Shown piece after piece: positions 3,001 through 64,000 of a DNA stretch of 64,000 bases (the first letter of the stretch is position 1; each line of letters begins with the position of its first letter). Position numbers and translations under genes: made by a program. The notes below the pieces were generated by a model, which had not been told where the DNA came from, ran no database searches, and saw only the letters and a program-made list of their open reading frames with translations. Source of the DNA: Meghimatium bilineatum (taxonomy: Eukaryota > Mollusca > Gastropoda > Stylommatophora > Philomycidae); NCBI GenBank assembly GCA_034231615.1, contig CM067318.1, positions 34,319,382-34,383,381 on the forward strand. The letters are read 5' to 3'.

Positions 3001-6000
3001 ACTAGATACATTTATGAAATGTGTTGAAAAGTTTGAAAATCAAAACAATATATTTCTAATGATAAACTAGATACATTTATGAAATGTTTTGAAAAGTTTC
3101 AAAATCAAAGAAATATTTTTCTAATTATAAATTAGATACATTTATGAGATGTGTTGAAAAGTTTGAAAATCAAAAAAATATATTTCTAATGATAAACTAG
3201 ATACCTTTATGAAAAGTGTTGAAAAATTTCAAAAAGAAAATCAAAAAATTCATTTCTATTGATAAACTATATACACTTATGAAATGTGTTGAAAAGTTTG
3301 AAAATCAAAAAATATATTTCTAGTGATAAACTACATACATTTATGAAATATGTTGAAAAGTTTGAACAAGAAAATAAAAATATATATTTCTAATGATAAA
3401 CTAGATACATTTATGAAATGTGTTGAAAAGTTTCAAAATCAAAAAAATATATTTCTAATGATAAAAACTAGATACATTTATGACATGTGTTGAAAAATTT
3501 CTAAAAGAAATTCAAAAAATAAATTTCTATTGATAATCTACCGGTAGATACATTTATGAGATGTGTTGAAAAGTTTGAAAATCAAAAAAATATATTTATA
3601 ATGATAAACTAGATACATTTATGAAATGTGTTGAAAAGTTTGAACAAGAAAAAAAAATATATATTTCTAATGATAAACTAGATACATTTATGAAATGTGT
3701 TGAAAAGTTTCAAAATCAAAAAAATATATTTCTCATGATAAAAACTAGATACATTTATGAAATGTGTTGAAATATTTAAAAAAGAAAATCAAAAAATAAA
3801 TTTCTATTGATAAACTATATACCCTTATGAAATGTGTTGAAAAGTTTGAAAATCAAAAAATATATTTCTAATGATAAACTATATTCATTTATGAAATGTG
3901 TTGAAAAGTTTGAACAAGAAAATAAAAAAAAAATATTTCTAATGATAAACTATATACATTTATGAAATGTGTTGAAAAGTTTGAAAAAGAAAGTGAAAAA
4001 ATATATTTCTAATAATAAACTACTGGTAGATACATTTATGAAATGTGTTGAAATGTTTCAAAATCAAAAAATATATTTCTAATGATAAACTAGATACATT
4101 TATGAGATGTGTTGAAAAGTTTGGAAAAGAAAATCAAAAAATATATTTCTTGTGATAAACTAGATACATTTATGAGATGTGTTGAAAAGTTTGAAATTAA
4201 AAAAAAATATATTTCTAATGATAAACTAGATACATTTATGAAATGTGTTGAAAAGTTTGAAAAAGAAAGTGAAAAGATATATTTCTAGTGATAATCTACC
4301 GGTAGATACATTTATGAGATGTGTTGAAAAGTTTGAAAAAGAAAATCAAAAAATATATTTCTAATAATAAACTACTGGTAGATACATTTCTGAAATGTTT
4401 TGAAATGTTTCAAAATCAAAAAATATATTTCTAATGATAAACTAGATACATTTATGAGATGTGTTGAAAAGTTTGGAAAAGAAAATCAAAAAAAATATTT
4501 CTAGTGATAAACTAGATACATTTATGAAATATGTTGAAAGGTTTGAAAAAGAAAATCAAAAAATATATTTCTAATGTTAATCTAGATACATTTATGAAAT
4601 GTGTTGAAAAGTTTGGAAAAGAAAATCAAAAAATATATTTCTTGTGATAAACTAGATACATTTATGAAATGTGTTGAAATGTTTGAAATTAAAAAAAATA
4701 TATTTCTAATGATAAACTAGATACATTTATGAAATGTGTTGAAAAGTTTGAAAATCAAAAAAATATATTTCTAATGATAAACTATATACATTTATGAAAT
4801 GTGTTGAAAAGTTTGAGAAAGAAAATGAAAAGATATATTTCTAGTGATAATCTACCGGTAGATACATTTATGAGAAGTGTTGAAAAGTTTGAAAAAGAAA
4901 ATAAACATATATATTTCTAATGATAAACTACCGGTAGATACATTTATGGGATGTGTTAAAAAGCTTTGAAAAATAAAATAAAAAAATATATTTCTAATGA
5001 TAAACTAGATACATTGCTGAAATGTGTTGAAAAATTTGAAATTAAAAAAAAATATATTTCTAATGATAAACTAGATACATTTATGAAATGTGTTGAAAAG
5101 TTTGAAAATCAAAACAATATATTTCTAATGATAAACTAGATACATTTATGAAATGTTTTGAAAAGTTTCAAAATCAAAGAAATATTTTTCTAATTATAAA
5201 TTAGATACATTTATGAGATGTGTTGAAAAGTTTGAAAATCAAAAAAATATATTTCTAATGATAAACTAGATACCTTTATGAAAAGTGTTGAAAAATTTCA
5301 AAAAGAAAATCAAAAAATTCATTTCTATTGATAAACTATATACACTTATGAAATGTGTTGAAAAGTTTGAAAATCAAAAAATATATTTCTAGTGATAAAC
5401 TACATACATTTATGAAATATGTTGAAAAGTTTGAACAAGAAAATAAAAATATATATTTCTAATGATAAACTAGATACATTTATGAAATGTGTTGAAAAGT
5501 TTCAAAATCAAAAAAATATATTTCTAATGATAAAAACTAGATACATTTATGACATGTGTTGAAAAATTTCTAAAAGAAATTCAAAAAAAAATTTCTATTG
5601 ATAATCTACCGGTAGATACATTTATGAGATGTGTTGAAAAGTTTGAAAATCAAAAAAATATATTTATAATGATAAACTAGATACATTTATGAAATGTGTT
5701 GAAAAGTTTGAACAAGAAAATAAAAATATATATTTCTAATGATAAACTAGATACATTTATGAAATGTGTTGAAAAGTTTCAAAATCAAATAAATATATTT
5801 CTAATGATAAAAACTAGATACATTTATGACATGTGTTGAAAAATTTCTAAAAGAAATTCAAAAAATAAATTTCTATTGATAATCTACCGGTAGATACATT
5901 TATGAGATGTGTTGAAAAGTTTGAAAATCAAAAAAATATATTTATAATGATAAACTAGATACATTTATGAAATGTGTTGAAAAGTTTGAACAAGAAAATA

Positions 6001-9000
6001 AAAATATATATTTCTAATGATAAACTAGATACATTTATGAAATGTGTTGAAAAGTTTCAAAATCAAAAAAATATATTTCTAATGATAAAAACTAGATACA
6101 TTTATGACATGTGTTGAAAAATTTCTAAAAGAAATTCAAAAAATAAATTTCTATTGATAATCTACCGGTAGATACATTTATGAGATGTGTTGAAAAGTTT
6201 GAAAATCAAAAAAATATATTTATAATGATAAACTAGATACATTTATGAAATGTCTTGAAAAGTTTCAAAATCAAAAAAATGTATTTCTCATGATAAAAAC
6301 TAGATACATTTATGAAATGTGTTGAAATATTTAAAAAAGAAAATCAAAAAATAAATTTCTATTGATAAACTATATACCCTTATGAAATGTGTTGAAAAGT
6401 TTGAAAATCAAAAAATATATTTCTAATGATAAACTAGATACATTTATGAAATGTGTTGAAAAGTTTGGAAAAGAAAATCAAAAAATATATTTCTAGTGAT
6501 AAACTATATTCATTTATGAAATGTGTTGAAAAGTTTGAACAAGAAAATAAAAAAAAAATATTTCTAATGATAAACTATATACATTTATGAAATGTGTTGA
6601 AAAGTTTGAAAAAGAAAGTGAAAAAATATATTTCTAATAATAAACTACTGGTAGATACATTTATGAAATGTGTTGAAATGTTTCAAAATCAAAAAATATA
6701 TTTCTAATGATAAACTAGATACATTTATGAGATGTGTTGAAAAGTTTGGAAAAGAAAATCAAAAAAAATATTTCTAGTGATAAACTAGATACATTTATGA
6801 AATATGTTGAAAGGATTGAAAAAGAAAATCAAAAAATATATTTCTAATGTTAATCTAGATACATTTATGAAATGTGTTGAAAAGTTTGGAAAAGAAAATC
6901 AAAAAATATATTTCTTGTGATAAACTAGATACATTTATGAGATGTGTTGAAAAGTGTGAAATTAAAAAAAAAAATATTTCTAATGATAAACTAGATACAT
7001 TTATGAAATGTGTTGAAAAGTTTGAAAAAGAAAGTGAAAAGATATATTTCTAGTGATAATCTACCGGTAGATACATTTCTGAAATGTTTTGAAATGTTTC
7101 AAAATCAAAAAATATATTTCTAATTTTAAACTAGATACATTTATGAGATGTGTTGAAAAGTTTGGAAAAGAAAATCAAAAAAAATATTTCTAGTGATAAA
7201 CTAGATACATTTATGAAATATGTTGAAAGGTTTGAAAAAGAAAATCAAAAAATATATTTCTAATGTTAATCTAGATACATTTATGAAATGTGTTGAAAAG
7301 TTTGGAAAAGAAAATCAAAAAATATATTTCTTGTGATAAACTAGATACATTTATGAAATGTGTTGAAATGTTTGAAATTAAAAAAAATATATTTCTAATG
7401 ATAAACTAGATACATTTATGAAATGTGTTGAAAAGTTTGAAAATCAAAAAAATATATTTCTAATGATAAACTATATACATTTATGAAATGTGTTGAAAAG
7501 TTTGAGAAAGAAAATGAAAAGATATATTTCTAGTGATAATCTACCGGTAGATACATTTATGAGAAGTGTTGAAAAGTTTGAAAAAGGAAATAAACATATA
7601 TATTTCTAATGATAAACTACCGGTAGATACATTTATGGGATGTGTTAAAAAGCTTTGAAAAATAAAATAAAAAAATATATTTCTAATGATAAACTAGATA
7701 CATTTATGAAATGTGTTGAAAAGTTTGAAAATCAAAACAATATATTTCTAATGATAAACTAGATACATTTATGAAATGTTTTGAAAAGTTTCAAAATCAA
7801 AGAAATATTTTTCTAATTATAAATTAGATACATTTATGAGATGTGTTGAAAAGTTTGAAAATCAAAAAAATATATTTCTAATGATAAACTAGATACCTTT
7901 ATGAAAAGTGTTGAAAAATTTCAAAAAGAAAATCAAAAAATTCATTTCTATTGATAAACTATATACACTTATGAAATGTGTTGAAAAGTTTGAAAATCAA
8001 AAAATATATTTCTAGTGATAAACTACATACATTTATGAAATATGTTGAAAAGTTTGAACAAGAAAATAAAAATATATATTTCTAATGATAAACTAGATAC
8101 ATTTATGAAATGTGTTGAAAAGTTTCAAAATCAAAAAAATATATTTCTAATGATAAAAACTAGATACATTTATGACATGTGTTGAAAAATTTCTAAAAGA
8201 AATTCAAAAAATAAATTTCTATTGATAATCTACCGGTAGATACATTTATGAGATGTGTTGAAAAGTTTGAAAATCAAAAAAATATATTTATAATGATAAA
8301 CTAGATACATTTATGAAATGTGTTGAAAAGTTTGAACAAGAAAATAAAAATATATATTTCTAATGATAAACTAGATACATTTATGAAATGTGTTGAAAAG
8401 TTTCAAAATCAAAAAAATATATTTCTAATGATAAAAACTAGATACATTTATGACATGTGTTGAAAAATTTCTAAAAGAAATTCAAAAAATAAATTTCTAT
8501 TGATAATCTACCGGTAGATACATTTATGAGATGTGTTGAAAAGTTTGAAAATCAAAAAAATATATTTATAATGATAAACTAGATACATTTATGAAATGTG
8601 TTGAAAAGTTTCAAAATCAAAAAAATATATTTCTCATGATAAAAACTAGATACATTTATGAAATGTGTTGAAATATTTAAAAAAGAAAATCAAAAAATAA
8701 ATTTCTATTGATAACTATATACCCTTATGAAATGTGTTGAAAAGTTTGAAAATCAAAAAATATATTTCTAATGATAAACTAGATACATTTATGAAATGTG
8801 TTGAAAAGTTTGGAAAAGAAAATCAAAAAATATATTTCTAGTGATAAACTATATTCATTTATGAAATGTGTTGAAAAGTTTGAACAAGAAAATAAAAAAA
8901 AAATATTTCTAATGATAAACTATATACATTTATGAAATGTGTTGAAAAGTTTGAAAAAGAAAGTGAAAAAATATATTTCTAATAATAAACTACTGGTAGA

Positions 9001-10735
9001 TACATTTATGAAATGTGTTAAAAAGTTTCAAAATCAAAAAATATATTTCTAATGATAAACTAGATACATTTATGAGATGTGTTGAAAAGTTTGGAAAAGA
9101 AAATCAAAAAAAATATTTCTAGTGGTAAACTAGATACATTTATGAAATATGTTGAAAGGTTTGAAAATGAAAATCACAAAATATATTTCTAATGTTAATC
9201 TAGATACATTTATGAAATGTGTTGAAAAGTTTGGAAAAGAAAATCAAAAAATATATTTCTTGTGATAAACTAGATACATATATGAAATGTGTTGAAAAGT
9301 GTGAAATTAAAAAAAATATATTTCTAATGATAAACTAGATACATTTATGAAATGTGTTGAAAAGTTTGAAAATCAAAACAATATATTTCTAATGATAAAC
9401 TAGATACATTTATGAAATGTGTTGAAAAGTTTGAACAAGAAAATAAAAAAAATATATTTCTAATGATAAACTATATTCATTTATGAAATGTGTTGAAAAG
9501 TTTGAACAAGAAAATTTTTAAAAAATATTTCTAATGATAAACTATATACATTTATGAAATGTGTTGAAAAGTTTGAAAAAGAAAGTGAAAAGATATATTT
9601 CTAGTGATAATCTACCAGTAGATACATTTATGAGATGTGTTGAAAAGTTTGGAAAAGAAAATCAAAAAAAAATATTTCTAGTGATAAACTAGATACATTT
9701 ATGAAATATGTTGAAAGGTTTGAAAAAGAAAATCAAAAAATATATTTCTAATGTTAATCTAGATACATTTATGAAATGTGTTCAAAAGTTTGAAATTTAA
9801 AATATATATTTCTAATGATAAACTAGATACATTTATGAAATGTGTTGAAAAGTTTGAGAAAGAAAATGAAAAGATATATTTCTAGTGATAATCTACCGGT
9901 AGATACATTTATGAGATGTGTTGAAAAGTTTGAAAAAGAAAATAAAAAAATATATTTCTAATGATAAACTACCTGTAGATACATTTATGAGATGTGTTAA
10001 AAAGTTTGAAAAATAAAATAAAAAAATATATTTCTAATGATAAACTAGATACATTGCTGAAATGTGTTGAAAAGTTTCAAAATCAAAGAAATATTTTTTC
10101 TAATGATAAATTACATACATTTATGAAATGTTTTGAAAAGTTTGAACAAGAAAATTTAAAAAAAAATATTGCTAATGATAAACTATATACATTTATGAAA
10201 TGTGTTGAAAAGTTTGAAAATCAAAAAAATATATTTCTAATGATAAACTAGATACATTTATGAAATGTGTTGAAAAGTTTGAAAAAGAATATCAAAAAAT
10301 AAATTTCTAATGATACACTATATACACTTATGAAATGTGTTGAAAAGTTTGAAAATCAAAAAAATATATTTCTAATGATAAACTAGATACATTTATGAAA
10401 TGTGTTGTAAAGTTTGGAAAAGAAAATCAAAAGATATATTTCTAGTGTATAAACTATATACATTTATGAAATATGTTGAAAAGTTTGAACAAGAAAATAA
10501 AAAATAAAATATTTTTAATGATAAACTATATTCATTTATGAAATGTGTTTAAAAGTTTGAACAAGAAAATTTTTTTTAAATATTTCTAATGATAAACTAT
10601 ATACATTTATGAAATGTGTTGAAAATTTGAAAAAGAAAGTGAAAAGATATATTTCTAGTGATAATCTACCAGTAGATACATTTATGAGATGTGTTGAAAA
10701 GTTTGAAAAAGAAAATAAAAAAATATATTTCTACT
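1..10735. repeat. AT-rich satellite array, monomer about 65-72 bp
   Basis: The whole stretch consists of diverged tandem monomers that share cores such as GATACATTTATGAAATGTG, TTGAAAAGTTTGAAAA and ATATATTTCTAATGATAAAC. Monomer length varies, mostly about 65, 66 and 70 bp. Some monomers carry a longer spacer with the palindrome ATCTACCGGTAGAT in place of the usual AAACTAGAT. Blocks of many monomers are themselves duplicated: the rare variant GATGTGTTAAAAAGC recurs at 2881, 4950 and 7639, giving higher-order shifts of about 2.07 and 2.69 kb. The array starts before the window, so its true length is unknown. It lies upstream of the penultimate COLGALT exon and is probably intronic. Monomers of 66 bp translate to a repeated peptide of about 22 residues, but most units break the frame. 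Confidence 0.97.
9994..10251 (+). pseudogene. Short open run through four satellite monomers (coding-like, probably not a gene)
   Basis: Four successive monomers stay in one frame and give a repeating peptide with the core NDKLxTFMKCVEKFENQ. The repeat is lysine-, asparagine- and phenylalanine-rich. Elsewhere in the array monomer lengths that are not multiples of three, together with the frequent TAATGATAAACTAG, close every frame. Either the satellite descends from a coding repeat or the open run is chance in a 66-bp unit; I favour chance, without being able to exclude the first. No start context, partner exon or known domain is visible. Confidence 0.25.
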
Positions 10736-12545: not shown

Positions 12546-12775
12546 TATTGCTAGTTTACTGTTGCATAATGGTTAGTCTGATAAGCAAATAGTGCGACCT
12601 TCAAACCTTCCACATTCAGGAACCATTGTCATTAAGTTAGCACAGACTTGAAACACTGTGTTCCTGTGTGACTGCACAACAAAGGTGATCCTTAGGATTT
12701 AACTCAACAGTTGTGAAATATGATATTGTTTACAATAAATCTAAGAAGTATTTACATGAATGATACTGTCCACAG

Positions 12776-12979
12776 ATATTTGGGAAGGAAACGTTTACGC
12801 AAAGACTTAGAGACAATGGTAGAGGGCAGCGATCGGTTGGCGTGGCCACACTATTCCTATTGGACAATCAGTTACATATTGTCTATCCGGGGTGCACGAA
12901 AACTGCTAGATCAGAAACCTTTGTCAAAGATGGTGCCTGTGGATGAGTACCTTCCAATCATGTTTGATAGGCATCCAGA
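12776..12979 (+). CDS. COLGALT: COLGALT penultimate coding exon
   Basis: The acceptor is ...CTGTCCACAG just before 12776 and the donor is GA|GTGAGTA after 12979. The exon encodes the GT25 catalytic-domain end, including YSYWT, GARKLL and the PVDEYLP motif expected near the active site. An open frame runs 56 nt further upstream without a family match, so the start at the CACAG acceptor is preferred over an ATG at 12720. Confidence 0.92.
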
Positions 12980-15900
12980 GTGAGTACTTGTTTAATTGTC
13001 AGCTAAAAGACATAATATCTTAGTGTTAACGGTGATGTTGAACAAAATACTTTTTGTTTTTTGTTTTTTATTTTGTCGTTTTCTGTTGTTTGTCTCTTGA
13101 AAAAGGTTCAATTTGAGCCGATACGTGGAGAATTGTCCTGTTTAGTTTTATTGTATGTTTTTTTTAAATATATTTTTATTAATAGGCTAGGTAAGTGTTT
13201 TAGTAACCTGTTTACTTCATTTTGCGTCTTATTTTCAAGCATGTCGTTGAAGGCGACTAAGTACAGTTGGGGCACAGTAAAGGCGACTAAGTACAGTTGG
13301 GGCACAGTAGAGGCGACTAAGTACAGTTGGGGCACAGTAGAGGCGACTAAGTACAGTTGAGGTACAGTAGAGGCGACTAAGTACAGTTGGGGTACAGTAG
13401 AGGCGACTAAGTACAGTTGGGGTACAGTAGAGACGACTAAGTACAGTTGGGGTACAGTAGAGGCGACTAAGTACAGTTGGGGTACAGTAGAGGTGACTAA
13501 GTACAGTTGAGGTACAGTAGAGGCGACTAAGTACAGTTGAGGTACAGTAGACTGACAAGTTGTCACCTGCAGAAAAATCGTTGTCACATATTGTTACAAT
13601 TTTGTCTTCCAACAAATCAACCCCCATGGATGATGAAGAGATGCCGGCAAGGAAATTGCACCTTTTGTGGCAGACTCCAATGTGACGGAGACTATGTGAC
13701 TGAGACTGTGTGACGGGGACTATGTGACGGAGAATGTTAGTTGTGTCATCACTACTGATGGGTCAATAGATCTGACATAAGAATGACAACATAGTTGGCC
13801 CAGATTTGTGTGGTGTGCTCCTGGCTCCTGGAATGCCTGCCTTTGGGGACTAAACATGCATTCAGAAACCTCCATGATGCAACAATGCCTTTGAGACAAC
13901 CTTATAGAGTCTAGGTTACACAAGAGCCTCAGTTACACAACTGAGAAGAAGCTATGCTATTGTCAGAAAGGCTATGGGCTATCAAATATAGCTCATATAT
14001 ATAGCTATATAGCTACCACCTAAAAACTAAAGGGATTCTTCTTCTTCGTTCATTCTCAAACTCCTGCAGATTAGCAGGTTGTAGTCCGGAGAACGGAATG
14101 CGTTGTGTCATGGTTTACATCATTGCTGTGATATATGCACCTTTCGGCCACCTGACACATCTGACTTCAGCATTACTAAAGGGATTATTTCATAATCATC
14201 ATTATAATACTGTGACTTGCAATGTATGTTGTAAGAGGCAGCTAAGGAGGGCTTGGAGTGTGGTTGGTTACTCCATTTCATAGAAAGACACACAAAAATA
14301 GTAGCATACCATGTATAAACTAATTCAATTATAAACCGAGCACATGATTTTAATGTCTGAAATTTGACACAAGTCTAGAATCCATTTATAGGCCGAGGTG
14401 TAGAATTCCATTATTATAATAATGAAGGGGCAAGTGCCACATGGTTTGCATCTGTGGGTATCACCAACTAGACAAACCATTAATGCAAAAGAAAGTCTTA
14501 GTAGATGGCATGCCGTTATATTGAGGTTCTCTTATAGAAGCTTCATGGCACATCACATATACAATTATGCTTTTATTTTATTGTTGCAATGTATTTTATG
14601 CTTTATTTGTATATATGTATGCACCTTCTGTGGTTGGGATAAAGCCAGAGATGTACTGTGCAGCACTGGGGAGGGGAGGAGGAAGCTGACAGCACTATAT
14701 GTTTCCTATGCTGAGGCCCATCATAGAGGCGCAATGACTTAGGAAGTGACAATCATTTTGACTTGAACATTTGGTTGCATGCCTGAAGCAATAGAGAAGT
14801 CTGACATAACCAGTAGTCAATTGGTGGCGGGGAATGAAGTGAACCCTACCTTAGCTCCAGTGATTTGAGCATTACTTAGGTAGAAAACTCACAAACCAAA
14901 TTAGACAATTACCAATTTATTATAATTATATTTTTTTTTTCATCGCATTTATTGTTTTTCATGCCATGTGCATCTTCGCTTGCGAAGGAGGAACTTCATC
15001 AGGTATCCTCTGGCTCTAACCGGGTTGGACCAAAAATCCACAGACCTCCCATCAATATAATGCTAGCACAACAAATATTATTTACAGACAAGCAGATACA
15101 AGATCGTCATAAAACAAAGTCTTCGCTTAACATCCTACAACTGAACATGGTATAGGAAACTCTTCTTCTTCAGCGTTCATTCTCAAACTCCCGCCAGATC
15201 TCTCTTGTAGCAGGACATATGTTTGCCAAATGTTGCATGAGTTTGGCTAAATGTTGTTATGTATTTGGTTAAATAATAATGCAGGGCAGAGCACCAGGGC
15301 AGAGGAGGAAAGGCAGACCAAGAAGATGATGGACTGACAACATTAAATATAACATGAATATGTCATTGGAGAATGCAAGCCGCATCGCCCACGACAGAGA
15401 ATGGTTCAGGGAGTTCATTAGAAAGACAACGTTCTGGAGAGAATATGTCACTGACAGTGTGACTAAATTTTGTATGTGTTTGACCAAATGTTGTATGTGT
15501 TTGACCAAATGTTGTATATGTTTGACCAAATGTTGTATGTGTTTGACCAAATGTTTTATGTGTTTGACCAAATGTTGTATGTGTTTGACCAAATGTTGTA
15601 TGTGTTTGACCAAATGTTGTATGTGTTTGACCAAATGTATGTGTTTGACCAAATTTTCTATGTGTTTGACCAAATTTTCTATGTGTTTTACCAAATGTTG
15701 TATGTGTTTGACCAAATTTTGTATATTTGACCAAATGTTGTATGTGTTTGACCAAATGTTGTATGTGTTTGACCAAATGTTGTATGTGTTTGACCAAATG
15801 TTGTAGATATCAAAGCCAAATGGTAAACTATGATGTAACATATTATCTTATCCGGACTACATCCTGTTCAGTCCTTTACAATGCCAAAGTCATATGTGTT

Positions 15901-28164: not shown

Positions 28165-29060
28165 ACATTAACGATTTTTCACAAAACATTCATCAGCTTT
28201 CTCATCAAAAAAGTCATCAGCTTTCTCATTTAAAAAATCAACTTTCTCATCAAAAAAGTCATCAGCTTTCTCATAAAAAAAAGTCATCAGTTTTTTCATC
28301 AACAAAGTCATCAGCTTTCTCATCAAAAAAATCATCAGCTTTCTCATTAAAAAATCAACTTTCTCATCAAAAAAGTCATCAGCTTTCTCATCAAAAAAGT
28401 CATCAGCTTTCTCATCAAAAAAGTCATCAGCTTTCTCATCAAAAAAGTCATCAGCTTTCTCATTAAAATAGTCATCAGCTTTCTCATTAAAAAATCAACT
28501 TTCTCATAAAAAGTCATCAGCTTTCTCATAAAAAATCAACTTTCTCATCAAAAACGTCATCAGTTTTTTCATCAAAAAAGTCATCAGCTTTCTCATCAAA
28601 AAAATCATCAGCTTTCACATAAAAAAATTCATCAGCTTTCTCATCAAAAAAATCATCAGCTTTCTCATCAAAAAAGTCATCAGCTTTCTCATCAAAAAAA
28701 GTCATCAGTTTTCTCATCAAAAAAGTCATCAGTTTTCTCATTAAAAAGCCATCAGTTTTCTCATCAAAAAAGTCATCAGCTTTCACATAAAAAAGTCATC
28801 AGCTTTCTCATCAAAAAAGTCATCAGCTTTCTCATCAAAAAAGTAATCAGTTTTCGCATCAAAAAAGGTATCAGCTTTCTCATCAAAAAAGTCATCAGTT
28901 TTCGCATCAAAAAAGTTTTCAGCTTTCTCATTTTAAAAAAGTCATCATCTTTCTCATTCAAAAATTCATCAGTTTTCGCATCAAAAAAGTCTTCCGTTTT
29001 CACATCAAATAAGTCATCAGCTTTCTCATAAAAAAAGTCATCAGTTTTCTCATAAAAAGG
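28165..29060. repeat. 24-bp minisatellite, about 36 units
   Basis: Units of GTCATCAGCTTTCTCATCAA plus AAAA with frequent shortenings of the A run and substitutions (AGTTTTC, TTCGCATC). On the - strand the unit reads as a (KADDFFDE)-type octapeptide, but indels move it between frames every few units, so no protein is proposed. Confidence 0.96.
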
Positions 29061-57300: not shown

Positions 57301-60300
57301 GTGACAGTAAGCAAACTCACTATCAACTAGGCTAGAACCTGGCACCTCTGTAACTCAGTTACAGTAGGCAAGCTCACTATCAACTAGCCTACAAGGCTTC
57401 TCATGTGTAGAAGAAAATAAAGTGTTTTCAATGTTTGGTAGTTTTTTTTCTTTAATGTGATTGTTCTATTCCAGGTGGAGTACCTTGCCGCAACATGGGT
57501 CCAATAAATGAATGGTTTGTTGCTGGCTTTGATGGAGGAGAAAATGCCTTGATTGGGTTTTCAACAGGTTTGTCATTATTTAAATTAGCCTTTATTTGAT
57601 TGTTTCAAGTAAGGGAAACTCCTATATCTCATGAATGTGATTGAATTACTTAAAAACACTTGATTATATCACAGTTTTATACATTGTATCACTTGCAATT
57701 AATCAAATGATTGGTTGGTTGCTAATCCATCTTTCCATGGCTCATGCACTTTGACCCAATTGTTTGAACGCATATCTTATTTGTCTTTGGGGGGGGGAGT
57801 TTTGTGTGTAAATAGGTCAAATCATAATTCTGTACAAGAAAATTTTAAAGGTTGTAGAATTTTGTTCCCTAACCAGTTTGTCCACCGCATTCTTGCAACA
57901 ATTTGAGTGTATTATTACTGCATACTCATGAATTTACAAGCATAATGCTTCTTGAAATTATGGAGGAGACGTAAAAACCTTGTATGCACATTCATCTGAC
58001 AAAGTGAAACATTATTTCAAACAAATAATCCGTTTTATTCCGGACGCATGTTTTTCCGGTTAACCTTTAGAGCCCAGCCCTCAATTAAAATTACACAATA
58101 TCCCCCTGGGGCCTGAATTCTTTTTTGGAAAATTTGCGTTATTGATGGTGGGTGTTTTGAAAACGCGATAACATTTTTGTTTTAACAGATATCAAAATAA
58201 TTTTTGCATATCTAAATAAAGGAGTGAATAGTGAATATAGTTGTTTTTTTGTTGTTGTTGTTGTATGTATGATATGACAGTTGTGAGCCGCCCGTGTGTT
58301 GCCAGGGCCTTAAGGGTAGCAAAGAATAGCAACACTGTTTACCTTCCATGCATGTCGTAAAAGGCGACTAAGGAGGTTATGGGATGTAGTTGGCTGTCCC
58401 ATCCCATATACTGCCAGAGACCCAAAGCCATGCTGAAGTTGGATGTGTCAGGTCAAAAGGCGCAGATACCGCAGCAATGTGTAAACCATGACACAATGAT
58501 TTCCGTTCTCTGGACTACATCCTGCTAATCTGCAGGAGTTTGAGTAGAAACGCAGAAGAAGAAGATGATAGTGGTGAGCATGATGTGAAGTTGAAAATTT
58601 GGGGAAAAATTGCAAAATCGCACATATAACTTCTTAACGACCCTAATACTTGAGCAATGTGTGGAAAAATTGATAAAATCCTCCCTAATACCTATACTTG
58701 TTGTATATATATTGTTTCATATACAAACTAATATAATATGGCCTAAAAAATGAATAAAACGTGAAGAAATCTCATAATGTCCATCCGGTCAACACTAGGT
58801 CTTGGCCGACACACAGCGTAATTATTGTCCATGCACACACGTGTCACCCCTGATACATATTATTTTTGTGTTTTTGAACGAATACACATACATTCTTAAC
58901 AAATAACAACATATTAAATACAAAAAACAACAATTAGAACATGTAGTCGCGATTACTTACCCATGGCAGGCGGTACTCAATTTGATAGTAAAATACTGCA
59001 CCGAAAATAGCTAAAGTCGCTCCAGAAATGCGTTACAAAACCAACTGGCTTTCCTCTTCTTACAATGGTAATGTGTAAAGGAATTTGATCTTTAGACTGA
59101 CGTATTCCTAGCTTCATGTGGCGGGAATTTCTACGTCTTATAAGCTTTACTTCGTGAAGTTCCGTACTCGCGATTCGGCACTATCTGTTAAGTCGCTGCG
59201 CAATATTGAGCCAATAGGCAAGATGTGGGGCACACTTTTGTTGCAAAATTGCGCCTGTAGAGTCCTAAATGTTAAGTAAAATGTACCTCTTATGGTACTT
59301 TCTTTCAACCTTAGATGTTAGTCCAATTTGGTTATATAAAGGCTTTACAACCATAAAAAAATTGTGGTTCTGGTAATCCAGTTACTACGACCTCTGGTTT
59401 GATTACAGTTACACATAATTTTTTTTTTTTCTAACTGCAGGTTTTGTCGAGTACATATTGATGCAACCCAGCGAGGCTTACAGTCCTTTCATTGAGCAGA
59501 TGAGGGTCAAAGTTCATATGTCCAAGATTGTTATTGAATTTCTCATCAACAATCCAGATGCTAGTTACGAGGATTTGTTGAATAAAATTCAGGTATTATG
59601 AATAAATTAATTATTGGAAAAATAAGTTCTTTTCTGTCAGGTATTTGTATTCACATAAAACTTCTTGTGCCCCCAGGTATCCTTCTTGTGTATTTTTCAT
59701 TCCTCTGTGTCCCTTTCATCCCCCCTGTTTAGAACTGCAGCATCGATCCTAGCTCCAGGGAGACTACAGCCCTTTATTGATCAGCTTGGCACACCCGGAT
59801 CACTGCCGACATCACTAAATTTGAAAAAAGAATGAACACTGCAGGCAATTTACGAGAGACAGAAGCAAACGGAAAAATCTTAGATCTGTCCTACTCTGGA
59901 CCCTCTGCACAAACTGCAATAGAACTTTCCTGGCACAAATCGGACATCTGCAAACTCACAAACCAAAAACAAATTAGACAATCACAAATTATTTTTTGTT
60001 CTTTTTGTTCACACCACATTTTTTGTCTTTCATACCATGTTCATCTTTGCTTGCAAAGGAGGAACATTATCAACACCAACCCCCTCCCCTTCATCTGCCC
60101 TGTTCACCTTTCACATGTGTGCGCTGACACACATACACAGTGGGTTTCATCCCTCCGTGTACCTTTCATCTTCCTTGTGTACCTTCTGTTCCACTTGTGT
60201 ACCTTCCATACCCCCTTGTCTTTCATCTTCACAGTCATAAAAGTGTCATTTTGGCTTTTTTGTGCACCAAATCAGTGAGGTTAGAAATGGCACGAACCCA

Positions 60301-62176
60301 ATGATTGTGCATTATGAAGTTACAGAAAGTGCCAGTAATCAAATTATCAACAGTGATTGCAAGAAGCAAGCAGTCACTTCCAGAATTGCATTAATGCTTA
60401 CATTTGAACATTTTAAAACTTATGAACATTTACATGTGTATTTAGATCTAGACAAATTAATGAAAGTCATGTGGTTCTTCTTCAGCGTTTATTCTCAAAC
60501 TCCCGCTGCATCTCTCTTGTAGCAGGATCATTGTCTTACTAGATTTCCAGCAGGATGTAGTCCAGAGAATGGAAATGTACTGTGGTGCCGTTTTATTTGC
60601 GGCAATGGCCCGACACATCCATCTTCAGCGGGATGTGGTTTTAAATATGCACTTCAAGAGAATTTTTGATAGAAAAATTTTGTCAAAATTTGAGCAGATT
60701 TTAAAATACCTTATATTTCTATAAATATTCTAGTTTCTATATTTACACATGGCATAACTTTATGTTCCTCAGACTACCGTACCTCCAGCTGGGCTGACAA
60801 GTTTATCAGAAGATAGCGTGCTCCAACATGCCCAGTTTGTGGTGGACCAAGTCCAGAGTTTTGATGATGCAGCAGAGGAGGATGAGTCTCTGCTCATTAC
60901 TACACCTTGCATGAGGGCGCTAATCAAACTGGCTGGCGTTACTTTGGGTAAAAGGTGTGTGAAGCACAATAAATATCTTCGCAGTCAGCTGGTGTTGTAT
61001 CATTTGTTTGTTCGCTTTCTAACTCCCTACTGGATCTTCTTGATTAGAAACTGGCCTCACAGCACGTGGGGCATTCCCATAAGTGTACTCCCTCTATTCC
61101 AGCAGCTATCTGATTTGATAGTGTTTTGAGTCTTATGCCGCCGAAACTGACGTCAACATCAGGGCACAACTCAGGCCCTTGCGGCAGGTTTCTTTGTTCT
61201 GCTGACCTACACTGTGCCCGTCCTAGTCCAAGCACAACGTTGGCATGTCGATACAACATGGTAACTGTTATCTAAGGTTACGACTACGGGATCCCCGCTG
61301 GATCTCCCTTTTAGCAGGAAAATGGTCAGACTAGATTTCCAGAAGGATGTCCAGAGAACAGATGCGTTATGTCATAATTTTATTTGCTTCAGTTGCTCAG
61401 CATGTACGACTTTGGCAGCGTTATATTATTTCACTAGCAGCATTTATAACTGATAAATGTTTATATAGCACACTCACTCAAGGCGTGTGTGTAAATGTGT
61501 ATCGAGAGTCAGTGAGATACTAAATATGCATGTACTTAAGAAAGAAAATCATATCATTTTAAATTAAATTTGGTTTGGGTGTTGTGGAATGGCATTAATT
61601 TTAACTTTTACAACACCTTTGTGTTGCCAGGGTCCGATAGGGGAACAAAGAATAGCAACACTGTTTACCTTCCACGCATGTCGTAAAAGGCGACTAAGGA
61701 GGTTATGGGATGGGGTTGGCTGTCCCATCCCATATATGGTCAGTACAGTAACCCAAAGCCATGCTGAAGTCAGATGTGTCAGGCCAAAAGGCGCAGATAT
61801 CGCAGCAATGCTGTAAACCATGACACAACGCATTCTGTTCTGCGGACTACATCCTGCTAATCTGCAGGAGTTGTTTGAGAACGAACGCAGAAGAAGCAGA
61901 ACTTTTACAATATAAAGACTTCATTTTCTGTTTTATGTCCTTCATGTAATTTTTCTAATATAAATGTAATATTTCTAATATTTATGGAATGGAGTCACTC
62001 TCGTTCTCAGGAGGCAGTTGAGAAAAGAGGTGGCCAGAGTAAAGGCTAAAAAAGAAAAACCCAAGGACACAAAAGCCACTGTGACTCCTCTTGTCCGAAG
62101 AATCTTTGACTCCATTTTCCAAGGTCAGATTGATGAGACTTCCAAGACTAAGAGACAGCTTTGTGGCATATGTGAG
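45327..62176 (+). CDS. DNMT1: DNA (cytosine-5)-methyltransferase 1, N-terminal half; spliced
   Basis: DNMT1 copies CpG methylation onto the new strand at replication forks. Exons 45327-45375, 47581-47865, 48897-48935 (candidate), 49078-49249, 50684-50765, 52315-52473, 53145-53262, 54955-55064, 55811-55929, 57475-57567, 59441-59592, 60773-60954 and 62011-62176 all have GT/AG borders and join in one frame, about 575 codons. In order: a DMAP1-binding-like start; a variable low-complexity linker; a PIP box QPTIMSLF near the place of the human QTTITSHF; a charged linker; the RFTS domain ([61 protein letters not shown]-like [26 protein letters not shown]); then a basic segment and LCGICE, the first two cysteines of the CXXC finger. 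The BAH and catalytic domains lie beyond the window. Introns are loaded with SINEs, LINE pieces and minisatellites. Confidence 0.96.
45435..45510 (-). mobile_element. SINE-like family A tail fragment
   Basis: TTCTTCGTTCGTTCTCAAAC, CAGGATGTAGTCCGGAGAAT, then a sharp change into the dispersed element at 45500. Confidence 0.75.
45500..46035 (+). mobile_element. Second copy of the AACAAACAAAC-tailed element
   Basis: Matches 38560-39045: TTCGGCTAAGAGGGTGAACG, GGTTCAGTACCCAATGGGCC, GCTAGGGCAGTCCACCCGAA, GCGAACGCAAAACAAACAAA. Truncated at the left, in the DNMT1 intron, same orientation as the gene. Confidence 0.8.
46165..46685 (+). mobile_element. SINE A copy split by a 250-bp insertion
   Basis: Head at 46170-46273 (CGTGTGTTGCCAGGGCCCAA to GGGATGGAGTTGG) and tail at 46527-46680 (CCATATAGGGTCAGTGACC to GAACGCAGAAGAAGAA) both fit one A element. 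The 250-bp insert is T-rich, includes TTGATAAAGATCCCAATTGG and ends TTTTCTAGTAACCTATTTAC, which recurs loosely at 13199 (TTTTAGTAACCTGTTTAC). Confidence 0.78.
46685..46955. other. Intronic sequence, partial duplication
   Basis: The 46690-46740 segment (TGTGTTATTGGCACCAGAAA, GGAAATAACACTTG) repeats 46090-46145, on the two sides of the SINE A copy. It looks like a duplication of about 50 bp flanking that copy. Nothing else recognised. Confidence 0.6.
46960..47205 (-). mobile_element. LINE C-terminal fragment, frameshifted
   Basis: On the - strand [19 protein letters not shown] in one frame continues as [19 protein letters not shown] and [17 protein letters not shown] in the next. The (IKEW.G.D....DVTSVAPLR) ending is that of a non-LTR element. 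Confidence 0.65.
47245..47445 (-). mobile_element. SINE-like family (tRNA-type ending)
   Basis: GGCCAGTTTCCTTCCTTGCT, GTTTACCTTCCCCAACTCAT and AAGCTCACTATCAGCTAGGC are shared with 57115-57390. The right edge, reversed, reads like a tRNA-type A-box region (CTAGCTGATAGTGAGCTTGC). Confidence 0.65.
47581..47865 (+). CDS. DNMT1: DNMT1 exon, DMAP1-binding-like part 2 and linker
   Basis: Acceptor TTTTTAATAG, donor GTG|GTAAGA, phase 0 at both ends, 95 codons. [20 protein letters not shown] begins the exon and matches the helix after the previous exon; the rest is Ser/Thr/Asn/Gly-rich, low in complexity, with no domain. The frame would run only two more codons past the donor before a stop, supporting the splice. 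Confidence 0.85.
47895..48355 (-). mobile_element. Two SINE-like family A copies in tandem
   Basis: 47897-48115 is a reverse A (TTCTTCTGCGTTCGTACTCA to TTAGTTGACTCTTATGACAT). 48150-48350 is a second, more diverged reverse A (GCATTCATTCCTGCAGTCCT, GCGCCTTCCAGCTCGGCAC). Confidence 0.78.
48480..48695. repeat. Degenerate tandem repeat, about 5 units
   Basis: The core CATATCTGCCCAAACCACTG with TCTGG and GCACATGCAGGT recurs with 35-60-bp spacing and many changes. Confidence 0.7.
48897..48935 (+). CDS. DNMT1: Candidate 39-nt DNMT1 exon
   Basis: Thirteen codons, [13 protein letters not shown], between a good acceptor (TTCCTTTCTTCCAAG) and a good donor (GAG|GTGAGC). Both flanking exons are phase 0 here, so it could be included or skipped without a frame change. 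No homology anchors it. Confidence 0.45.
49078..49249 (+). CDS. DNMT1: DNMT1 exon, acidic linker with a basic cluster
   Basis: Acceptor TATGTCATCAG, donor CGAA|GTAAGT, leaving one base. It encodes an acidic stretch ([20 protein letters not shown]) and then [18 protein letters not shown], which could serve as a nuclear localisation signal. The ending (VETPTR) is in the place of the TPRRSK-type motif of vertebrate DNMT1. Confidence 0.9.
49315..49475 (-). mobile_element. SINE-like family B copy
   Basis: TTTTTCGGCGTTTATTTTCA, CTACTAGATTTCCAACACGA and CCAATGGCCCGACACATTTG in reverse B order. A family A head scrap follows at 49510-49562 (GTGTTGCTGGAGCCCAAAAG). Confidence 0.82.
49605..49700. repeat. 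33-bp tandem repeat, 3 units
   Basis: TGATGTGGTTTCTCTCCTAC plus TTCCTGTGTACAG three times, almost identical. Confidence 0.92.
49905..49990 (-). mobile_element. SINE A central fragment
   Basis: GGATCACTTTGACCCCATGT and GATGGGACAACCAACTCC match the middle of family A in reverse. Confidence 0.5.
50005..50640. mobile_element. Dispersed element C, copy 1
   Basis: CAAACGTGAAGAAATCACAT, CACCTCTGATACATATTGTT, GTAATGTGTAAAGGAATTTG and TATAAGCTTTACTTCGTGTG are shared, in order, with 58715-59265 in another DNMT1 intron. A 28-bp unit (TCACTTGCCAATGCTACACT plus ACATTTGA) is tandemly tripled at 50248-50332 in this copy only. No coding capacity, class unknown. Confidence 0.8.
50684..50765 (+). CDS. DNMT1: DNMT1 exon with the PCNA-binding PIP box
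   Basis: Acceptor CTATACTCTACAG, donor GGAAG|GTGAGT. It encodes [20 protein letters not shown] then [14 protein letters not shown] has the Q-x-x-I-x-x-(x)-F pattern of a PIP box and stands at the place of the human DNMT1 PIP box, between two charged linkers. It should tether the enzyme to PCNA at replication foci. Confidence 0.93.
50940..51335. repeat. About 34-bp minisatellite, about 12 units
   Basis: Units of TTGATTGATTGATTTTGTGG plus TTCCTATTCTGTG, switching from TTTTGTGG to TTTGGTGG half way, and with a (TTGA) count that varies. It is wholly in a DNMT1 intron. Confidence 0.96.
51415..51620 (+). mobile_element. LINE post-RT fragment
   Basis: GTGCGGAACTTCATCAGAAA, ACAGCAGGTCAAATGGTTCT encode (VRNFI.KQQVKWF), followed by [12 protein letters not shown]. 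Same group as the fragment at 10890. Confidence 0.55.
51880..52185. mobile_element. LINE 3' end with inverted 5' part (twin-priming structure)
   Basis: 51884 to about 52045 is coding on the - strand ([20 protein letters not shown] then KAK, ending at 51884). 52052-52185 is coding on the + strand ([26 protein letters not shown]). The sequence K-A-K followed by G-(R)-PRRRW is what one uninterrupted LINE would have, so the two halves are parts of one element with its 5' part inverted. The + half matches the ending at 15285-15462. Confidence 0.75.
52315..52473 (+). CDS. DNMT1: DNMT1 exon, charged linker
   Basis: Acceptor AATTTCCAAGCAG, donor GAAAG|GTAAGC. It encodes a Lys/Asp/Glu-rich linker with [32 protein letters not shown] and NQQER. 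PKRAK is a possible nuclear localisation signal; a CDKC pair is an unusual feature here and I know of no role for it. Confidence 0.93.
52785..53085. repeat. About 50-bp tandem repeat, about 6 units
   Basis: GAG(C/G)TATCTGCTCGCAGCTA plus TAGGTATTATTTCATCATCA and TGTGTCAA, with a variable (CAT)n. It ends about 60 bp before the acceptor of the exon at 53145. Confidence 0.95.
53145..53262 (+). CDS. DNMT1: DNMT1 exon, start of the RFTS domain
   Basis: Acceptor TTCTTATTTACAG, donor GCT|GTAAGT. It encodes [20 protein letters not shown], then PGDSEDA. The C-x-x-C pair provides the first two zinc ligands of the RFTS domain as known from vertebrate DNMT1. Confidence 0.95.
53660..53935 (+). mobile_element. 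SINE-like family A copy
   Basis: AAGTGTTGCCGGACTCAAAA, GGAAGTGACTAAGAGGATTT, CAGATATTGTAGTCAAGCTG and GCAGGAGTTTGAGAAC in A order; diverged. A faint reverse A relative follows at 53945-54095. Confidence 0.78.
54180..54280 (+). mobile_element. SINE A tail fragment
   Basis: TGCTGAAGTTGGATGTGTCA, GGCCGAAAGGTGCAG and CTACTAATCTGCAG, with the 3' tail missing. Confidence 0.75.
54340..54610 (+). mobile_element. LINE C-terminal end
   Basis: ILQGTADG, a stop, [20 protein letters not shown] and [20 protein letters not shown] lead to CGACCCTGAAGGGTTATGG. The W.DNIK.W.....R.AW.......VAP pattern and the short 3' end match other non-LTR fragments here (29190, 46960). Confidence 0.75.
54615..54830 (+). 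mobile_element. SINE-like family A copy, diverged
   Basis: GTGTATTGCCAGGTCTGAAA, GTGTAAGTGGTGACTAAGGA and TGCGGAAGTTTGATGTGTTG, truncated at the tail. Confidence 0.7.
54955..55064 (+). CDS. DNMT1: DNMT1 exon, RFTS domain
   Basis: Acceptor TTACTATTTCTAG, donor [31 protein letters not shown] leads to [10 protein letters not shown], corresponding to the LSIF...LPQHKLTCFS block of vertebrates. Confidence 0.95.
55150..55305 (-). mobile_element. SINE-like family B copy (left arm of an inverted pair)
   Basis: TCAGCGTTCATTTTAACTCA, CAGGGTGTAGTCCAGAAAAT and ATTTGCGCCAATGGCAGACA in reverse B order. Confidence 0.82.
55335..55515 (+). mobile_element. SINE-like family B copy (right arm of an inverted pair)
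   Basis: ACCGAAGATGGATGTGTTGG, GGACTACATCCTTCTGGAAA and GAATGAACGTTGAAGAAGAA in sense order. With the copy at 55150 it could form a stem of about 150 bp with a 30-nt loop in DNMT1 pre-mRNA. Confidence 0.85.
55811..55929 (+). CDS. DNMT1: DNMT1 exon, RFTS domain zinc-site region
   Basis: Acceptor TTCCCTTCCAG, donor AAG|GTATGG (one base over). It reads [39 protein letters not shown]. The human VYCKHGHLC has the third zinc-ligand Cys where this protein has Asp; the His and the following Cys are kept. Confidence 0.95.
56095..56345 (-). mobile_element. LINE post-RT fragment
   Basis: On the - strand: [20 protein letters not shown], then after a stop [19 protein letters not shown]. Typical WF.H..R and GRPRRKW motifs. 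Confidence 0.72.
56400..56640 (+). mobile_element. LINE reverse transcriptase fragment
   Basis: [39 protein letters not shown], then [15 protein letters not shown] is the RT palm motif (YADD with the Tyr changed to Asn). With the preceding - strand fragment it may be one element with an inverted 5' part. Confidence 0.8.
56705..56875 (-). mobile_element. SINE-like family B copy
   Basis: ACAGTGTTCATTCTCAAACT, CTACTAGATTTCCAGCAGGA and CACATCCATCTTCTGCGTGG in reverse B order; well preserved. Confidence 0.87.
57110..57395 (-). mobile_element. SINE-like family (tRNA-type ending), second copy
   Basis: GGCCAGTTTCCTTCCTTGCT, then GCACGCTGTAACCTGGTGAC and AAGCAAACTCACTATCAACT. The last 55-60 bp are duplicated (57287-57345 and 57347-57392). 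Related to 47245-47445. Confidence 0.7.
57475..57567 (+). CDS. DNMT1: DNMT1 exon, RFTS core
   Basis: Acceptor TTGTTCTATTCCAG, donor [30 protein letters not shown] then [13 protein letters not shown]..(A/T)GFDGGE.ALIGFST is the most conserved RFTS signature and is intact. Confidence 0.97.
57570..58280. other. Intronic, nothing recognised
   Basis: Contains a G run at 57789-57798 and a (GTT)n near 58245-58262. Confidence 0.55.
58285..58565 (+). mobile_element. SINE-like family A copy, nearly complete
   Basis: CCCGTGTGTTGCCAGGGCC, CGTAAAAGGCGACTAAGGAG, AGGCGCAGATACCGCAGC through CGCAGAAGAAGAAG. The flanks (GACAGTTGTGAGC, GATAGTGGTGAGC) look like an eroded target duplication. Confidence 0.9.
58715..59265. 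mobile_element. Dispersed element C, copy 2
   Basis: Same block order as 50005-50640 (AAAACGTGAAGAAATCTCAT, GTCACCCCTGATACATATTA, GGTAATGTGTAAAGGAATTT, CTTATAAGCTTTACTTCGTG) without the 28-bp tripling. Two copies in one gene, both sense relative to each other. Confidence 0.8.
59441..59592 (+). CDS. DNMT1: DNMT1 exon, RFTS domain C-terminal lobe part 1
   Basis: Acceptor TTTTCTAACTGCAG, donor [49 protein letters not shown], then EDLLNKIQ. The acidic YED, which in vertebrate DNMT1 faces the catalytic domain during autoinhibition, is conserved. Confidence 0.97.
59735..60235 (+). mobile_element. Dispersed repeat fragment with CTTGCAAAGGAGGAAC ending, then T/C-rich sequence
   Basis: 59940-60065 shares AAACTCACAAACCAAA and TTGC(A)AAGGAGGAAC blocks with 14880-15010. 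An open frame upstream ([20 protein letters not shown]) may be a retroelement remnant. 60070-60235 is a degenerate repeat of TTCATC and GTGTACCTT segments. Confidence 0.4.
60475..60640 (-). mobile_element. SINE-like family B copy
   Basis: CTTCTTCAGCGTTTATTCTC to CCGACACATCCATCTTCAGC, full B order in reverse. Confidence 0.87.
60773..60954 (+). CDS. DNMT1: DNMT1 exon, RFTS domain end
   Basis: Acceptor TATGTTCCTCAG, donor [71 protein letters not shown]. The block aligns through its length with the vertebrate TTVPPSGL...[16 protein letters not shown] segment. A stop follows at 61128 if the intron is retained. Confidence 0.97.
61015..61260 (-). mobile_element. Repeat fragment ending CPTCCEASF
   Basis: The - strand frame ends [17 protein letters not shown] with a stop and TAATCAAGAA, the same end as at 27130-27190 on the + strand. 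The upstream parts of the two copies differ, so one or both are chimeric or very diverged. Confidence 0.5.
61285..61415 (-). mobile_element. SINE-like family B, partial
   Basis: CCCGCTGGATCTCCCTTTTA, ACTAGATTTCCAGAAGGATG and TTTATTTGCTTCAGTTGCTC; lacks the tail. Confidence 0.75.
61614..61899 (+). mobile_element. SINE-like family A copy with target-site duplication
   Basis: Flanked by the 11-bp direct repeat AACTTTTACAA (61603-61613 and 61900-61910), which sets the element at 286 bp, from CACCTTTGTGTTGCCAGGG to CGCAGAAGAAGCAG. This is the reference copy for family A. Confidence 0.92.
62011..62176 (+). CDS. DNMT1: DNMT1 exon, linker and start of the CXXC zinc finger
   Basis: Acceptor CACTCTCGTTCTCAG, donor GAG|GTAGGC. 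It encodes a basic stretch ([17 protein letters not shown]), then [20 protein letters not shown] and [22 protein letters not shown] is a conserved DNMT1 block, and C-G-I-C-E starts the CXXC finger, which must be completed by the next exon beyond the window. The last 12 nt and the donor are the template of the adjacent minisatellite. Confidence 0.97.
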
Positions 62177-64000
62177 GTAGGCTTGATTGTGGTATATGTG
62201 AGGTAGGCTTGATTGTGGCATATGTGAGGTAGGCTTGATTGTGGCATATGTGAGGTAGGCTTGGTGGCATATGTGAGGTAGGCTTGATTGTGGTATATGT
62301 GAGGTAGGCTTGGTGGCATATGTGAGGTAGGCTTGATTGTGGTATATGTGAGGTAGGCTATATTTGGCATATGTGAGGTAGGCTATATTTGGCATATGTG
62401 AGGTAGGCTATATTTGGCATATGTGAGGTAGGCTATATTTGGCATATGTGAGGTAGGCTTGGTGGCATATGTGAGGTAGGCTTGATTGTGGCATATGTGA
62501 GGTAGGCTATATTTGGCATATGTGAGGTAGGCTTGGTGGTATATGTGAGGTAGGCTATATTTGGCATATGTGAGGTAGGCTTGATTGTGGCATATGTGAG
62601 GTAGGCTATATTTGGCATATGTGAGGTAGGCTATATTTGGCATATGTGAGGTAGGCTATGTTTGGCATATGTGAGGTAGGCTATATTTGGCATATGTGAG
62701 GTAGGCTATGTTTGGCATATGTGAGGTAGGCTTGGTGGTATATGTGAGGTAGGCTATATTTGGCAAATGTGAGGTAGGCTTGATTGTGGTATATGTAAGG
62801 TAGGCTTTATTTGGCATATGTAAGGTAGGCTTGATTGTGGCATATGTGAGGTAGGCTTGATTGTGGTATATGTGAGGTAGGCTTGATTGTGGTATATGTG
62901 AGGTAGGCTTTATTTGGCATATGTAAGGTAGGCTATGATTGTGGCATATGTGAGGTAGGCTTGATTGTGGCATATGTGAGGTAGGCTTGATTGTGGTATA
63001 TGTGAGGTAGGCTTTATTTGGCATATGTAAGGTAGGCTATGATTGTGGCATATGTGAGGTAGGCTTGATTGTGGCATATGTGAGGTAGGCTTGATTGTGG
63101 TATATGTGAGGTAGACTATGATTGTGGCATATGTGAGGTAGGCTTGATTGTGGCATATGTGAGGTAGGCTTGATTGTGGCATATGTGAGGTAGGCTTGGT
63201 GGCATATGTGAGGTAGGCTTGATTGTGGCATATGTGAGGTAGGCTTTATTTGGCATATGTAAGGTAGGCTATGATTGTGTCATATGTGAGGTAGGCTTGA
63301 TTGTGGTATATGTGAGGTAGGCTTTATTTGGCATATCTGAGGTAGGCTTGATTGTGGTATATGTGAGGTAGGCTTTATTTGGCATATGTAAGGTAGGCTA
63401 TGATTGTGGCATATGTGAGGTAGGCTTGATTGTGGCATATGTGAGGTAGGCTTGATTGTGGTATATGTGAGGTAGGCTTTATTTGGCATATGTCAGGTAG
63501 GCTATGATTGTGGCATATGTGAGGTAGGCTTGATTGTGGCATATGTGAGGTAGGCTTGATTGTGGCATATGTGAGGTAGGCTTGATTGTGGCATATGTGA
63601 GGTAGGCTTGGTGGCATATGTGAGGTAGGCTTGATTGTGGCATATGTGAGGTAGGCTTTATTTGGCATATGTAAGGTAGGCTATGATTGTGGCATATGTG
63701 AGGTAGGCTTGATTGTGGTATATGTGAGGTAGGCTTTATTTGGCATATCTGAGGTAGGCTTGATTGTGGTATATGTGAGGTAGGCTTTATTTGGCATATG
63801 TAAGGTAGGCTATGATTGTGGCATATGTGAGGTAGGCTTGATTGTGGCATATGTGATGTAGGCTTGATTGTGGCATATGTGATGTAGGCTTGATTGTGGC
63901 ATATGTGAGGTAGGCTTTATTTGGCATATGTGAGGTAGGCTATGATTGTGGTATATGTGAGGTAGGCTTGGTGGCATATGTAAGGTAGGCTATGATTGTG
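62165..64000. repeat. About 25-bp minisatellite derived from the DNMT1 exon/intron junction, 70 or more units
   Basis: Units of GGCATATGTGAGGTAGGC plus a variable spacer (TTGATTGT, TTGGT, TATATTT, TTTATTT, TATGATTGT), 21-27 bp each, run to the window edge. The first unit is the real exon end GGCATATGTGAG with the real donor GTAGGC. The array therefore overlaps the exon by 12 nt. Blocks of several units are themselves repeated (for example TTTATTTGGCATATGTAAGG near 62910, 63015, 63245, 63375 and 63657). Long open frames on the - strand through the array follow from its sequence and are not genes. Confidence 0.97.

What the first reader, a model, noticed from the sequence alone, without database searches (positions are those of the whole stretch)
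62160..64000. A minisatellite made of a DNMT1 exon/intron junction: dozens of tandem copies of the 5' splice site
The repeat unit GGCATATGTGAGGTAGGC equals the last 12 nt of the exon (codons G-I-C-E of the CXXC finger) plus the first 6 nt of the intron. The array begins inside the exon, so the real donor is simply the first of some 70 look-alikes. Using the second donor would add 26 nt and shift the frame. Using the third or later ones would include a TAG made at the next unit boundary (GTG-AGG-TAG). The cell must therefore choose the outermost donor, tolerate frequent mis-splicing, or use it to tune DNMT1 level through nonsense-mediated decay. An intronic array seeded by a coding splice junction in the maintenance methyltransferase is something I do not know to be described.
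Basis: partly seen in the sequence, partly recalled or inferred. Interest (0 to 1): 0.88.

Follow-up and report, generated by a model that had tools for sequence, protein, structure and literature searches.

The report
Slug DNMT1 splice-junction minisatellite, copied
In a land slug genome, a length-variable tandem repeat grew out of the very end of a coding exon of the DNA-methylation gene DNMT1, so the likely splice site is followed by dozens of copies of itself; the stretch that was read is one of about 75 scattered, truncated copies of that gene, while the one copy with a catalytic part carries the same repeat.

Summary
The array (window 62161-64000, on to 65417) starts inside a DNMT1 exon ending LCGICE|GTAGGC; the next exon is VCQQPDCGKC in phase 0, so the inferred donor is the first of 117 AGGTAGG donors, and all 116 later ones lead to an early stop. 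But the window locus is not the working gene: it is a truncated DNMT1 (cut at ...DVFAGCGG, then aspartyl-protease exons). About 75 such copies of an RFTS exon lie on 20 contigs; in sampled copies the shared segment is about 90 kb beside a 70-bp satellite, 1.0-2.6% apart, exons as diverged as introns. The only DNMT1 catalytic exon found (chr10:38.92 Mb) belongs to a gene with the same junction array (50 donors; 49 of 49 alternatives stop). So the array predates the dispersal. Assembly sizes match the land slug Meghimatium bilineatum. A minisatellite of splice donors is known from human IFI6. Chance expectation is about 0.4 such arrays in introns this rich in minisatellites. Most likely a tolerated array: exon definition picks the outermost donor, errors go to decay. 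Dosage tuning is untested. The dispersed DNMT1 segment is the larger surprise.

The parts
1..10733 (.). 70-bp AT-rich satellite at the left edge of the dispersed segment (continues upstream of the window)
   Evidence: TRF 154.8 copies; GC 0.20; same satellite upstream in C21 and beside the C1 84.3 Mb copy, beside the C1 62.9 Mb copy and the chr10 gene
12717..12980 (+). exon of a procollagen galactosyltransferase gene upstream of DNMT1; the same DNA is in two C1 copies
   Evidence: PDB COLGALT1 chains E 1.1e-18 to 1.4e-18; no Pfam hit for this piece; copies at C1 84.3 and 62.9 Mb
59441..59592 (+). DNMT1 RFTS exon ([15 protein letters not shown]...)
   Evidence: reading frame with AG/GT ends; PF12047 match at C21:34378752-34378973
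60773..60959 (+). DNMT1 RFTS exon ([15 protein letters not shown]...), ends approximate
   Evidence: PDB DNMT1 E 8.7e-21; no Pfam hit for this piece alone
62011..62176 (+). DNMT1 exon, 166 nt, ending ...[11 protein letters not shown] (start of the CXXC finger); Leu where the chr10 gene and the other copies read have Arg
   Evidence: PDB DNMT1 E 2.3e-4; exon ends compared; gastropod alignment
62177..62182 (+). inferred 5' splice site GAG|GTAGGC, first of 117 AGGTAGG donors in the intron
   Evidence: phase and next exon; donor counts
62161..64000 (+). junction-seeded minisatellite, units mostly 23-27 bp; runs on to 65417 in window numbering

Best explanation
A tandem duplication at a DNMT1 exon end (about 15-17 coding nt of the CXXC finger plus 6-8 intron nt) founded a minisatellite that has since grown and shrunk in the intron. 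It arose before a segment holding the galactosyltransferase gene and the 5' part of DNMT1 was cut off, joined to other DNA and dispersed about 75 times. In the chr10 gene the first donor is chosen because the exon is short (166 nt) between introns of kilobase size (exon definition favours the donor nearest the exon's own acceptor). Use of a later AGGTAGG donor breaks the zinc finger and brings an early stop, so errors should go to nonsense-mediated decay. The array is most likely tolerated rather than used. Shown: anatomy, copies, frames, age order. Inferred: donor choice, decay, neutrality in the working gene.
For: Array in the one DNMT1 locus with a detected catalytic exon: C10 intron 2120 nt, 53 units, 50 donors. 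Exon end at the same place in nine of nine compared loci and ten of ten dna-search loci, one being the window. The unit core carries codons C-G-x-C-E that are invariant in four relatives, so the exon is the source. 390 of 405 core units keep GT, within the range of the other core positions (L014 and L015 are identical and both counted): no sign of donors being purged or kept. Minisatellites are dense: 14 TRF arrays in 32.7 kb of C21 (the junction array split in two of them), 12 in 27 kb of C10; expected number whose founding unit spans a junction 0.36-0.40 under assumed 26-30 junctions. Exon-definition rule: abstract of PMC9225289. Seven distinct copies: exon divergence 1.70%, intron 1.59%.
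Against: No transcript was examined. By my donor matrix (recalled human frequencies) 3 later donors in C10 score higher than the real one (GAGGTAGGT, 5.15 vs 3.68), and 21 sites in C21 do, so the first donor is not the strongest. Intron-definition models would favour inner donors. The array's persistence in the chr10 gene over about 4-7% intron divergence from the copies could be read as a sign of use. The chance estimate rests on assumed junction numbers and was not tested on other genes. PF00145 was seen in only one DNMT1 exon although the C10 gene has others (GLSEGFHQAG exon not reported), so copies with other catalytic exons could have been missed.
Confidence: 0.72

Rival explanations
1. 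Splice dial: the array competes for U1 and diverts a fraction of DNMT1 pre-mRNA to inner donors, lowering DNMT1 through decay; length changes set the level.
For: 50 of 209 GT sites scanned in C10, the real donor included, score at least as high as the real donor; 49 of 49 alternative AGGTAGG donors give stops; in IFI6 two downstream repeat units serve as donors (passage in a citing paper).
Against: No RNA evidence. No preferential conservation of donor bases within units. Exon definition predicts the outermost donor. Array density makes a chance origin plausible.
Confidence: 0.12
2. The array is a dispersed satellite that landed on DNMT1 by chance.
For: 1956 exact unit cores across the genome.
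Against: The seven further array loci that I fetched whole (the first ones of the capped list, all on C1) are copies of the DNMT1 segment. The unit contains conserved DNMT1 codons, so the exon is the source. C10 has the array at the same place.
Confidence: 0.02
3. The window locus itself is a working DNMT1.
For: The exons read are open with usable splice sites.
Against: It reads to ...LRTLDVFAGCGG and runs into aspartyl-protease exons; the only DNMT1-type PF00145 exon found is on chr10; Leu at a position that is Arg in four of four relatives aligned; the copies show equal exon and intron divergence.
Confidence: 0.02
4. The truncated copies make a catalytically dead RFTS-CXXC-BAH protein or RNA that interferes with DNMT1.
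For: Several copies are open in the exons read.
Against: Exon and intron divergence are equal among copies; 3 of 8 loci have a frameshift in one of two exons and 1 of 7 loci read (of 10) has a stop.
Confidence: 0.05

Closest known systems
[quoted passage not shown] seen only as a citation and in a citing sentence; the paper itself is not held)
   Same: Tandem repeat at an exon/intron boundary (position recalled) whose units act as splice donors.
   Different: In IFI6 two downstream repeat units are used as donors and three mRNA species result. Here every alternative AGGTAGG donor predicts an early stop, the unit holds coding zinc-finger codons, and the array also sits in about 75 truncated gene copies.
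Segmental duplications (low-copy repeats), including satellite-adjacent ones (general knowledge)
   Same: Over 90% identity, tens of kb, tandem and dispersed, adjoining satellite.
   Different: About 75 copies of one gene fragment over 20 contigs, near-equal distances between the copies compared, and truncation of a DNA methyltransferase gene.
Internal tandem repeats altering gene structure in duplicated human genes (PMC2812944, title and start of abstract in search listing)
   Same: Tandem repeats inside duplicated genes that vary between paralogs.
   Different: There gene structure changes; here the exon end stays in place and the intron array varies in length.

Membership tests
IFI6-type donor minisatellite | array starts at an exon/intron boundary | tested here: met
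IFI6-type donor minisatellite | units hold a donor-like sequence | tested here: met
   390 of 405 core units keep GT
IFI6-type donor minisatellite | several of the donors are used in mRNA | not testable with these tools
   no RNA data reachable
DNMT1 (window copy) | RFTS, CXXC and BAH parts | tested here: met
   CXXC by reading, not by profile
DNMT1 (window copy) | C-5 methylase catalytic domain | tested here: not met
   reads to FAGCGG, then protease exons follow; PF00145 only on C10 and C8
DNMT1 (chr10 gene) | catalytic exons present | tested here: met
   PF00145 E 4.2e-15, PPCQGFSGMNRF; only about 30 kb of the gene was read, its two ends were not
segmental duplication | over 1 kb and over 90% identity between loci | tested here: met
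transposable element | fixed ends, target-site duplications, own mobility genes | not tested
   ends were only bracketed by samples

The most novel reading that the evidence does not exclude
The array next to the DNMT1 donor is a fast-mutating splice dial: its changing length sets how much DNMT1 pre-mRNA is lost to inner donors and decay, so slug lineages drift or adapt in maintenance-methylation capacity through a minisatellite; exchange between array units and the exon end can also rewrite the last zinc-finger codons (changes of that kind are seen in copies L016, L018, L019).
Probability: 0.08. Interest if true: 0.85.

Novelty: new member of a known kind. Interest (0 to 1): 0.5.

Why it matters
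It gives a natural test of how the spliceosome picks one donor among 50 or more near-identical neighbours, in a gene whose dose matters, with one working locus and about 75 copies of different array length as built-in comparisons. It also shows a DNA methyltransferase gene fragment spread over most chromosomes beside a satellite; if all copies were as long as those sampled (about 90 kb) it would make up about 0.4% of the genome, a case for how large segments disperse.

Tried and rejected
Rejected: array as a foreign satellite; window locus as working gene. The first donor ranking on C10 failed because its acceptor reads GTGTGTC, not GTATGTC; corrected. In one search two of four exons were translated in the wrong frame; of those only the lengths were used. 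Stops inside PF12047 matches may lie in introns and were not used as pseudogene evidence. The right edge of the segment was not found: three C1 copies match to about 104 kb in window numbering. No tree was built; 'burst' rests on a distance matrix. No other species' DNA was reachable, so the age of the array outside this genome is unknown. Literature: the listings (15 of 274 shown; 12 of 13; 11 of 11; 10 of 52) showed nothing on DNMT1 dispersal or on such an array in snails; that is not proof of absence.

Full report
What was claimed and what is there. The array is real and starts within a DNMT1 exon. The exon matches PDB DNMT1 chains up to CGVCE. Past the window the intron ends ...TTGTAG|GTATGTCAACAACC, encoding VCQQPDCGKC in phase 0. 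The joined product CGICEVCQQPDCGKC is the form in Lymnaea. The inferred donor is therefore GAG|GTAGGC, the first of 117 AGGTAGG donors in a 4210-nt intron; 69 lie in the window part. Donor 2 adds 26 nt and reaches a stop 24 codons on; donors 3 to 5 as printed stop after 9 codons, later ones share that prefix, and 116 of 116 alternatives give a stop.

Which genome. Contig lengths C1 135,710,302, C10 41,456,156, C14 68,076,188 and C21 57,311,727 and 32 contigs of 1.612 Gb equal chr1 135.71, chr10 41.46, chr14 68.08 and chr21 57.31 Mb, 25 chromosomes plus 7 scaffolds, of Meghimatium bilineatum (PMC10770140: abstract, one section and passages read). The best DNMT1 protein hits are the gastropods Lymnaea (77% identity over 48% of the query) and Plakobranchus (51% over 96%). 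The species is thus an inference, but a firm one.

The window locus is a truncated copy. The unit core occurs 1956 times in the genome (only the first places are listed). Seven array loci on C1, the first of that list, proved to be copies of the surrounding DNMT1 DNA on both sides of the array. The RFTS profile PF12047 gives 105 exon matches: 76 of the second RFTS exon on 20 contigs, the chr10 gene and the window included, and 29 of the first (150 of 237 candidates scored, so lower bounds; three of the 76 lie within 3 kb on C19). An exon search scored 40 of 110 candidates, and all 40 exon places are 97-100% identical to the window exon. The catalytic profile PF00145 gives two matches: a DNMT1 exon on C10 and an exon on C8 that looks like the tRNA methyltransferase DNMT2 (my reading). 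That search saw only one of the C10 catalytic exons, so it cannot exclude copies with other catalytic exons. In C21 the gene reads to LRTLDVFAGCGG, then come two aspartyl-protease exons (cathepsin D by my reading). In two sampled C1 copies the shared segment runs from the 70-bp satellite and 12.3-12.6 kb to 103.6-104.4 kb in window numbering, about 91 kb without the satellite; a third matches from 18 to 104 kb. The lengths of the other copies are unknown. Sampling was sparse, some samples had no match, and insertions of a few kb seem to interrupt some copies. Samples show the chr10 gene to be colinear with the window from about 11 kb on, satellite included, and the two part at about 80.2 kb.

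Age order. The eight copies compared differ by 1.0-1.6%, except L018 (2.1-2.6%) and the pair L014/L015 (no difference). Among seven of them exons diverge as much as introns, 1.70 vs 1.59% with approximate exon limits, and some are broken (3 of 8 by frameshift; 1 of 7 read by a stop): they behave as pseudogenes of one burst. Against C10 they differ by 7.1-7.4% (left of the array) and 3.8-4.5% (right) in introns but 2.5-3.1% and 1.3-2.7% in exons, so exons on the line between them were constrained. The array is in C10 too (53 units), hence older than the burst and long carried by the working gene. Array length varies from 9 to 126 units over the eight loci, and from 13 to at least 60 donors over ten loci (six of the ten not held to the array end).

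How it works. The C10 intron is 2120 nt; 50 of 209 GT sites scanned, the real donor included, score at least as high as it with a recalled human matrix (47 identical, 3 higher), and 49 of 49 alternatives give a stop, 23 codons on for donor 2 and 8 for the next ones printed. With the exon 166 nt long between introns of kilobase size, exon definition predicts the donor nearest the exon's acceptor (PMC9225289, abstract only), that is, the outermost. I infer that donor 1 is used mainly and errors are removed by decay. Units show no special conservation or loss of the donor: 390 of 405 keep GT, within the range of the other core positions.

Exchange with the exon. Exon ends in L018 and L019 (TGTAAG), L019 (GGTATATG) and L016 (TGTCAG), and the donor of L013 (GTACGC), carry changes that also occur as array variants. 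This suggests that array units can overwrite the exon end; the count is small and L018/L019 may share one event.

Is it surprising? In these introns TRF gives 12-14 arrays per 27-33 kb (in C21 the junction array counts as two); the chance expectation that a founding unit spans a junction is 0.36-0.40, assuming 26-30 junctions. So one such gene is unremarkable in this genome. The kind is known from IFI6 (passage). New here, as far as these searches show, are the gene, the coding zinc-finger unit, the stop at every alternative AGGTAGG donor and the set of about 75 dispersed copies.

Noticed in passing
window 1-64000 and the other RFTS exon places on 20 contigs: Segment of about 90 kb where sampled, with a galactosyltransferase exon, the 5' part of DNMT1 and protease 3' exons, dispersed beside a 70-bp satellite; mechanism of spread unknown.
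   Followed up: partly
C1:53.09 and 53.13 Mb (L014, L015); C14:26.28-26.94 Mb; C19:40.744-40.748 Mb: Local clusters of copies. L014 and L015, 34 kb apart, do not differ in the flanks compared and are 99.9-100% identical in the best-paired samples: very recent, or an assembly duplication.
   Followed up: partly
window numbering 77762-80115 (L010, L011): 37-bp array shortly after the FAGCGG exon: 63.6 copies in C21 but 4.6 in the chr10 gene.
   Followed up: no
window 18606-18953 and 52786-53084: What looks like the same 51-bp minisatellite family in two places of the segment, in opposite orientation (consensus units, compared by eye).
   Followed up: no
window numbering 83729-87384, minus strand (L011): LINE-like element with endonuclease and, by eye, reverse-transcriptase and RNase H frames.
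   Followed up: no
window 28175-29058: 24-bp array, 37.6 copies, open in several frames.
   Followed up: no
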